DNA of 10,293 nt, taken from contig JAQULX010000063.1 in NCBI GenBank assembly GCA_028718465.1, positions 1-10,293 of the forward strand, written 5' to 3'. Every line of letters starts with the position of its first letter. The first letter of the stretch is position 1. This DNA is from Dehalococcoidales bacterium. GTDB lineage: Bacteria; Chloroflexota; Dehalococcoidia; Dehalococcoidales; UBA3254. Below the pieces are notes generated by a model. That model was not told where the DNA came from and made no database searches. It saw only the letters and a program-made list of their open reading frames with translations. Both the position numbers and the translations under genes were made by a program. Positions 4,889 to 5,605 of this stretch are shown in pieces.

Positions 4889-5605
4889 TCAATCGTCGAA
4901 AGCCTGGCTTACCTTCCAGACCTCCCAGACCTTACCAACCAGGGCTGGCGATGGTTTTAAGGTAGGCTTACCCGGTTTCCATCCGGAAGGAGTTGCTTCG
5001 GTACCTTTTGAATTACGTACAAGCTGGAAAGCCTTAATCTGCCTGATAGATTCACTGACATTGCGACCTACCGAAGGAGTGAGAACTTCAAAACCTTGAA
5101 TAATGCCGTCGGGATCAATAATGAACCTGCCCCGTGTTTCCACCCCGCTGTCATCGTCATAGATGCCGTACATTTTACCGATACTGCCATCTTGGTCGGA
5201 CAGCATCGCGAAGGGAATGTCTTTGTTGATCATTTTCGAAAGCTCATTATCATTCCACATCTTGTGTACGTAAATGCTGTCAACGCTACAGGATAGTACT
5301 TCTACACCCAGTTCCTGGAGTTCGGCATGTTTTTCAGCAACTGCTGAAATCTCAGTCGCTCAGACAAAGGTGAAATCGCCTGGATAGAAACATAGCAAAA
5401 CCCATTTCCCCTTATATTCAGAAAGGCTTGTGTTCATAAATTTACCGTTGTAATAGGCTGAGGCTGTAAAATCAGGGGCCGGCTTACCGACCTTTACCAT
5501 AGTTTTTCCCTCCTTCACATTGACTTCTGGAGTAGCTGTGTCAGCTTGTACGGCAGGTTTCTTAATAGCTGGTCTTTGGCATCCCGGTTTGAATTCTTCA
5601 GGCAT
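4889..5605 (-). CDS. prxU: Selenocysteine-containing peroxiredoxin (PrxU/AhpC-like), TGA read as Sec
   Basis: Two open segments (5605-5363 and 5359-4889) share one frame and are split only by TGA 5362-5360. Read through, they give 238 residues with Sec at position 82. The thioredoxin-fold active site reads [15 protein letters not shown], so the TGA replaces the peroxidatic cysteine. The rest is a typical AhpC/Prx1-class chain: [25 protein letters not shown], and a tail with SGWKPG where AhpC has VCPANW. The usual C-terminal resolving cysteine is therefore missing. The other cysteines are C9, C72 and C106. Such enzymes reduce H2O2 and organic peroxides using thioredoxin-like donors, usually in the cytoplasm. 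ATG5605 has a full AGGAGGTGA site. An internal ATG5500 has GGAGGG seven bases upstream and would put Sec at residue 47, so two forms are possible. The real stop is also TGA (4891-4889). SelA/B/C/D must be encoded elsewhere for this reading to hold. The alternative is a gene inactivated by one nonsense change. Confidence 0.9.
5332..5359 (-). promoter_or_regulatory. Candidate bacterial SECIS hairpin
   Basis: Ten bases after the in-frame TGA, on the - strand, TTTCAGC (5349-5343) pairs perfectly with GCTGAAA (5338-5332) around the loop AGTT. The loop begins 17 bases after the TGA, and its second base is G. Bacterial SECIS elements are known to have a short apical loop about 16-37 bases past the UGA with a G in the first or second loop position, which SelB recognises. 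This hairpin fits, although the stem has only 7 bp and I could not fold it computationally. Confidence 0.75.
5360..5362 (-). other. In-frame UGA selenocysteine codon
   Basis: TGA at 5362-5360 is the only stop between the two halves of the peroxiredoxin, and the frame is identical on both sides. Conserved family sequence continues without insertion or deletion: FTFV before, [20 protein letters not shown] after. The position matches the catalytic cysteine, the classic place for a Cys-to-Sec replacement. Confidence 0.88.
5508..5513 (-). promoter_or_regulatory. Internal Shine-Dalgarno for a second peroxiredoxin start
   Basis: GGAGGG (5513-5508) lies seven bases before the in-frame ATG at 5500-5498 ([11 protein letters not shown]). 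Starting there removes a 35-residue N-terminal extension and leaves the compact Prx core. The site is a complete ribosome-binding site inside a coding sequence, so a short form may be made alongside the long one. Confidence 0.55.

What the first reader, a model, noticed from the sequence alone, without database searches (positions are those of the whole stretch)
4889..5605. Peroxiredoxin with UGA-encoded selenocysteine in place of the peroxidatic cysteine
An ordinary gene caller would split this gene into an 81-residue and a 123-residue ORF and lose the 33 residues between. Read through the one TGA, it is a continuous 238-residue Prx, and the TGA falls exactly at the catalytic position (FTFV-x-ATE). 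Selenocysteine peroxiredoxins (PrxU) are known, so the family is not new. The gene is still very likely misannotated, and it predicts a selenocysteine system in this organism.
Basis: partly seen in the sequence, partly recalled or inferred. Interest (0 to 1): 0.9.

Follow-up and report, generated by a model that had tools for sequence, protein, structure and literature searches.

The report
Selenium peroxiredoxin gene with two starts
This is a real selenium-containing antioxidant enzyme gene of a known family (PrxU), and genes of that family keep a second, internal start signal, which suggests that one gene makes two versions of the enzyme, with and without a cysteine-bearing tail.

Summary
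Confirmed. On the minus strand, 5605-4889, a 238-codon gene has one in-frame TGA (5362-5360, codon 82) at the peroxidatic position of an AhpC/Prx protein. It passes NCBIfam's PrxU model (403.9 bits, cut-off 270). All 80 kept genome relatives have TGA there. A covarying hairpin follows; none of 16 Cys-type genes keeps its inner five pairs. SelB, SelA and SelD are over cut-off in 17, 16 and 17 of 18 relatives' genomes searched. The window's own genome is not held. So: ordinary PrxU, probably of a Dehalococcoidia bacterium.

By my rule it is conserved in 118 of 120 distinct long PrxU genes (control windows 0.8%); perfect AGGAGG in 101, against 16.1 expected from synonymous shuffles. The Peptoclostridium acidaminophilum prxU gene has it too. 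The upstream codons carry a conserved Cys9 and are under protein-level selection. I infer two products, 238 and 203 residues, both with Sec, differing in the Cys9 arm. The usual C-terminal resolving cysteine is lost.

The parts
4889..5605 (-). prxU, long reading: 238 codons with Sec at codon 82, plus stop TGA 4891-4889
5613..5618 (-). Shine-Dalgarno hexamer AGGAGG of the first start (spacing 7)
   Evidence: perfect in 62 of 80 genes with an aligned first codon
5501..5605 (-). N-terminal arm, codons 1-35, made only from the first start; holds Cys9 (codon 5581-5579)
   Evidence: C9 in 80 of 80 loci; codons 2-12 pN/pS 0.216 in 18 pairs
5509..5514 (-). internal Shine-Dalgarno hexamer AGGAGG (spacing 8 to the internal ATG)
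4889..5500 (-). prxU, short reading from the internal ATG 5500-5498 (codon 36): 203 residues, Sec at residue 47 (inferred product)
5390..5392 (-). Cys72 codon (TGT), ten residues before Sec
   Evidence: in 134 of 135 Sec genes and 2 of 16 Cys-type genes
5360..5362 (-). TGA codon 82, selenocysteine at the peroxidatic position
5332..5349 (-). SECIS-like hairpin TTTCAGC-AGTT-GCTGAAA, ten bases after the TGA
4991..4993 (-). Thr205 codon, at the place of the usual C-terminal resolving cysteine
4831..4866 (-). terminator-like inverted repeat with T run after the gene
   Evidence: read from the sequence; no terminator program was run

Best explanation
The gene is prxU, an AhpC/Prx1-like peroxidase whose peroxidatic residue is selenocysteine, inserted at the UGA through the hairpin behind it by a SelABCD system (seen in relatives, inferred for this host). 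The gene has two in-frame starts, each with its own Shine-Dalgarno site, and most likely yields a 238-residue form with a flexible arm carrying Cys9 and a 203-residue form without it; both contain Sec. The selenol attacks the peroxide; the resulting selenenic acid cannot be resolved by the usual C-terminal cysteine, because that place is Thr205. I think that Cys72 with an outside thioredoxin-like thiol, or Cys9 in long subunits, does this. Shown by sequence: TGA position, hairpin covariation, conservation of the second start, loss of the resolving Cys, conserved Cys9 and Cys72. Inferred: that both products are made, and the roles of Cys9 and Cys72.
For: PrxU model 403.9 bits vs 270. TGA at codon 82 in 80 of 80 kept loci. 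Hairpin: 129 distinct sequences, 92.1% of pair cells paired vs 80.3% shuffled mean (maximum 82.4% of 500); 109 compensatory cells vs at most 44; inner five pairs in 107 of 129, in 0 of 16 Cys-type genes. Second start: 118 of 120 distinct long Sec genes vs 167 of 20400 control windows; perfect SD 101 vs 16.1 expected, z 24.8; KE before codon 36 spelled AAG GAG in 57 of 58, elsewhere 0 of 17. Arm: pN/pS 0.216 (core 0.206, linker 0.50). The P. acidaminophilum prxU gene has the same layout. Some genes without the arm start at the place of the internal start.
Against: No expression data: neither start is shown to be used. The sampled genes share ancestry, so z is a yardstick, not a probability. L023 and L100 lack the internal site by my rule. 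In 38 of 81 genes the internal SD lies 11 bases from the start, rather far. The hairpin misses an inner pair in 22 of 129 sequences, and 7 sequences, all of one short-gene clade, lack GU in the loop. The window's own stretch does not fold better than shuffles over 76 nt, and over 34 nt prefers another, less conserved hairpin. No Rfam SECIS match. The host's Sec genes were not seen.
Confidence: 0.7

Rival explanations
1. Only the long product is made; the AAGGAGG before codon 36 serves something else, such as slowing the ribosome ahead of the UGA, or is a relic of an older start.
For: SD-like stretches inside genes need not start translation; often 11 bases from the start (38 of 81). RefSeq annotates the P. 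acidaminophilum gene over 240 codons.
Against: A relic would not hold AAG GAG in 57 of 58 cases across phyla, nor keep a start codon (ATG, GTG or TTG) at the right distance in 118 of 120 genes. In diverged genes the start shifts by one codon and can be GTG, still behind an SD.
Confidence: 0.17
2. Only, or nearly only, the short product is made; the upstream codons are a relic or a regulatory stretch.
For: From memory (paper not held) the first described PrxU has 203 residues with Sec47, which equals the short product of the P. acidaminophilum gene. Genes without the arm exist.
Against: The first start has its own SD (perfect in 62 of 80); codons 2-12 are as constrained as the core (pN/pS 0.216 vs 0.206); Cys9 in 80 of 80 loci; the prefix stays in frame and free of stops while its length varies.
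Confidence: 0.1
3. The TGA is a true stop or a sequencing error and the gene is broken.
For: The host's Sec machinery could not be seen.
Against: TGA in 80 of 80 loci of many phyla; homology runs on through the TGA; the hairpin covaries.
Confidence: 0.01

Closest known systems
PrxU (NCBIfam NF040737), first described from Eubacterium (now Peptoclostridium) acidaminophilum
   Same: Sec at the peroxidatic position, Cys9 arm, Cys72, hairpin after the UGA, and the same internal ATG behind AGGAGG
   Different: No difference in kind; the window gene is a member. The two-start layout belongs to most of the family and was not seen in any paper listing or passage that I saw
AhpC / typical 2-Cys peroxiredoxins (TIGR03137; human Prx1-4)
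   Different: Sec for Cys; resolving Cys replaced by Thr205; extra Cys72 and Cys9 arm; below the TIGR03137 cut-off, 188.2 vs 272 bits
Bacterial genes with two in-frame starts and one stop (PMC11005335, PMC9430671; search listing and start of abstract only)
   Same: Two nested products predicted from one reading frame
   Different: Here the shared part holds a Sec active site and the extra part a conserved cysteine; use of both starts is not yet shown

Membership tests
PrxU (NF040737) | Score over the curated cut-off of the family model | tested here: met
   403.9 bits vs 270
PrxU (NF040737) | In-frame UGA at the peroxidatic (TxxU) position | tested here: met
PrxU (NF040737) | Bacterial SECIS-type hairpin just after the UGA | tested here: met
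   conserved with covariation across relatives; energy of the window alone inconclusive; no Rfam match
PrxU (NF040737) | Host has SelA, SelB, tRNA-Sec and SelD | tested here: inconclusive
   own genome not held; relatives' genomes mostly have them
PrxU (NF040737) | Sec in the protein and peroxidase activity | not testable with these tools
   needs 75Se labelling, mass spectrometry and an assay
Typical 2-Cys peroxiredoxin (AhpC/Prx1 type) | C-terminal resolving cysteine (VCP motif) | tested here: not met
   Thr205 here; no Cys in any of 132 readable Sec genes
Gene with two in-frame starts | Conserved internal start codon with SD beyond what the protein sequence demands | tested here: met
Gene with two in-frame starts | Both products seen in cells | not testable with these tools
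   needs ribosome profiling or N-terminal proteomics

The most novel reading that the evidence does not exclude
PrxU genes are nested genes: one mRNA makes a long selenoperoxidase with a Cys9 arm and a short one without it, in most PrxU lineages. The two mix in one Prx ring, where Cys9 of the long subunits takes over the work of the lost resolving cysteine, so that the ratio of the two starts sets how the selenenic acid is recycled.
Probability: 0.25. Interest if true: 0.7.

Novelty: new member of a known kind. Interest (0 to 1): 0.5.

Why it matters
The PrxU call itself is expected biology. The useful addition is a family-wide, testable feature of a known selenoenzyme. If both starts are used, work on the short form alone leaves out a conserved cysteine, and the long annotation alone leaves out the other product. 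It also names candidates for how a Prx without its normal resolving cysteine is recycled: Cys72 (in 134 of 135 Sec genes, in none of the 14 Cys-type genes outside the PrxU clade) and Cys9 (80 of 80 loci). It also shows that many database proteins of this family carry Trp at the active site (28 of 34 aligned).

Tried and rejected
Sequencing error or true stop: rejected, TGA in 80 of 80 kept loci. Rfam at E<=10: no SECIS family. Energy folding as proof of the hairpin: not convincing for the window alone (76 nt, z -0.77, 34 nt, z -2.79 but for another hairpin), so I relied on covariation; the other hairpin is less conserved (79.6% of cells paired, all seven pairs in 15 of 129, against 92.1% and 88 of 129). 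I first took position 204 for the lost resolving Cys and corrected it to 205 from the alignment with solved Prx and a motif count. Synteny with the closest loci: no shared neighbour gene found. Host by the 1131-aa activase: best match 34% in G005, behind a locus titled Desulfotomaculaceae; none in G001-G003, behind loci titled Dehalococcoidia or Dehalococcoidales; not informative. AlphaFold model: mean pLDDT 79.4, residues 19-34 under 50; no coordinates are given, so Cys9-Sec and Cys72-Sec distances were not measured. The VIA rows barely test residues 1-33, so nothing is claimed about a fold of the arm. The founding PrxU paper (PubMed 11501765) is not held; its 203 residues and Sec47 are recalled. 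Long and short genes were told apart by a regular expression; of the 15 Sec rows called short, L151 shows a Cys-bearing arm of another spelling, and L155 and L166 look cut off at a contig end. Three of 151 rows, under 150 residues, were left out of the tree (148 used). That the two starts are not in print rests on searches of an open-access library, seen as listings, and on passages of seven papers.

Full report
What is there. The gene runs on the minus strand from ATG 5605 to TGA 4889, with one in-frame TGA at 5362-5360. The read-through protein (238 residues) matches AhpC-TSA, Redoxin and 1-cysPrx_C and NCBIfam NF040737 peroxi_PrxU with 403.9 bits against a cut-off of 270; the general AhpC model TIGR03137 stays below its cut-off (188.2 vs 272). 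The TGA aligns with the peroxidatic cysteine of solved Prx proteins. A terminator-like repeat follows the gene (read; no program run).

Is the TGA Sec? A scan of one genome per species gave 358 confirmed relatives; the best 80 were kept, and all 80 have TGA at this codon. They were ranked by likeness to the window, so this is not a census. Among 34 database relatives aligned (of 120 listed), 28 have Trp there, 5 Cys and 1 Gly; I read the Trp as TGA translated with another code. Ten bases after the TGA lies the hairpin UUUCAGC-AGUU-GCUGAAA. Over 129 distinct sequences 92.1% of pair cells are paired, against a mean of 80.3% (maximum 82.4%) in 500 shuffles of the 3' letters; there are 109 compensatory cells against at most 44; the inner five pairs are complete in 107 of 129 Sec-type and 0 of 16 Cys-type genes. 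Against: 22 of 129 miss an inner pair; 7, all of one clade of short genes, lack GU in the loop; the window's stretch alone does not fold better than shuffles over 76 nt and over 34 nt prefers a competing hairpin, which is less conserved; Rfam has no match.

Sec machinery. The window's own genome is not held. In 18 of the genomes behind the 80 loci, SelB is over cut-off in 17, SelA in 16, SelD in 17; all 18 SelD places over cut-off have one in-frame TGA themselves. tRNA-Sec is over cut-off in 17, but only 15 are strong (67.9-78.4 bits); G003 and G004 reach 49-50 bits, a level that need not be tRNA-Sec, since 5 of 14 control genomes also ring over the cut-off. G007, about 0.9 Mb, has none of the four over its cut-off. 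SelB and SelD each ring over cut-off in 2 of 14 controls, SelA in 1.

Host. The prxU tree groups the window with L004 (titled Dehalococcoidia) and with the G001 gene (behind L001, titled Dehalococcoidia), support 99/91, within a clade mixed from Chloroflexota and Bacillota. The neighbouring 370-aa protein has six hits with an organism name among 120 listed; all six are Chloroflexota, five of them Dehalococcoidia, Dehalococcoidales or Dehalococcoidaceae. A Dehalococcoidia host is likely; the large activase does not help and no neighbour is shared with the closest loci. Of 245 genomes of the class of G001, 40 have a Prx match at E<=1e-30, and 16 of these read TGA at codon 82 (matches without a fetched locus were not read). 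Selenocysteine in Chloroflexi is in print (passages of PMC4959059, and of PMC1794560), so it is no new trait of the phylum.

The second start. Codon 36 is ATG with AGGAGG at spacing 8. In 80 genes with an aligned first codon (window plus 79 loci), the 17 bases before codon 36 hold AGGAGG perfectly in 67 and with one mismatch in 13; synonymous shuffles within each gene expect 11.6 perfect (z 19.6); 394 later in-frame ATGs have none. KE dipeptides just before codon 36 use AAG GAG in 57 of 58, elsewhere 0 of 17, so the selection is on the DNA, not on Lys-Glu. With more diverged genes and without identical ones (151 distinct: 135 TGA, 16 Cys), 118 of 120 long Sec genes have ATG, GTG or TTG (109, 7, 2) three to six codons before Gly40 with at least five of six AGGAGG bases at spacing 4-11; 167 of 20400 control windows of the same genes do; 101 are perfect against 16.1 expected, z 24.8. 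These genes share ancestry, so z is a yardstick. In diverged genes from the class of G001 the start lies one codon earlier and can be GTG, still behind an SD. L023 and L100 fail the rule. Internal spacing is 11 in 38 of 81 genes, longer than usual.

The arm is protein. In 18 independent pairs codons 2-12 have pN/pS 0.216 and the core 0.206; the linker, in 13 pairs of equal length, 0.50. Cys9 is in 80 of 80 loci. The prefix varies from 34 to 41 codons, always in frame. Eight genes of one clade (L132, L133, L135, L136, L138-L141) have no arm and begin near the place of the internal start. The tree needs 7 changes for the long label and has long genes at its deep forks, so the arm may be old and lost in places; its bootstrap had not settled.

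The first-described member. The P. acidaminophilum megaplasmid carries prxU, annotated over 240 codons. It has U84, the arm MPQDFKPGCARP, the same hairpin and an internal ATG at codon 38 behind AGGAGG at spacing 8. From that ATG the product has 203 residues with Sec47. From memory the founding paper gives 203 residues and Sec47; I could not read it. A genome paper lists the Clostridium sticklandii peroxiredoxin as 240 residues with Sec at 84 (PMC3091704, passages). If memory serves, the two descriptions fit the two starts. A Chloroflexota plasmid gene (L182) has an internal ATG with five of six SD bases.

Mechanism. The resolving cysteine of typical 2-Cys Prx is Thr205 here and is absent in all 132 Sec genes that could be read. 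Cys72, ten residues before Sec, is in 134 of 135 Sec genes; of 16 Cys-type genes only L106 and L147 have it, and both fall inside the Sec clade. In 99 of 120 long genes Cys72 is the only cysteine after Gly40. Of 12 short Sec genes checked, 9 have it as the only cysteine in the stretch counted; L141 shows another that lies before its start, L131 has a second, and L145, outside the clade, lacks Cys72 and has another. So the usual resolving position is out; Cys72, Cys9 or an outside thiol must act. Which one is inference.

Verdict. A real, ordinary PrxU gene, with a family-wide second start that I did not see reported in the listings and passages searched (searches; passages).

Noticed in passing
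P0002-P0121: 28 of the 34 database relatives that were aligned have Trp at the Sec position, as if TGA had been read as Trp; the families of such proteins may be misread as Trp-type Prx.
   Followed up: partly
L147, L106: Two Cys-type genes lie inside the Sec clade of the tree and keep Cys72: likely Sec-to-Cys changes. L147 also keeps the arm and the internal start.
   Followed up: partly
L133, L135, L136, L138-L141: Seven of the eight genes of a short-only Sec clade lack the GU loop of the hairpin, although they have TGA at the same codon; their recoding signal may differ.
   Followed up: no
L145: A distant TGA-type Prx outside the PrxU clade, without Cys72 and with a very long branch: perhaps a separate gain of Sec.
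   Followed up: no
L175: One relative has an in-frame TAA five codons after the TGA, inside the hairpin stretch: a broken copy or an assembly error.
   Followed up: no
55-3450: 1131-aa BadF/HgdC-type CoA-enzyme activase with DUF2229 on the plus strand; only 32-37% identity in the ten genomes searched.
   Followed up: partly
6996-10241: Three adjacent minus-strand signalling genes, two of them with a receiver domain in front of a histidine kinase and one a lone receiver.
   Followed up: no
5741-6853: 370-aa protein upstream of prxU with a lipoprotein-like start; no Pfam hit here, while most listed relatives that cover it are tagged PF27154.
   Followed up: partly
3924-4841: MBL-fold hydrolase downstream of prxU on the same strand, behind the terminator-like repeat; an MBL-fold gene also lies a few genes from prxU of P. 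acidaminophilum.
   Followed up: no
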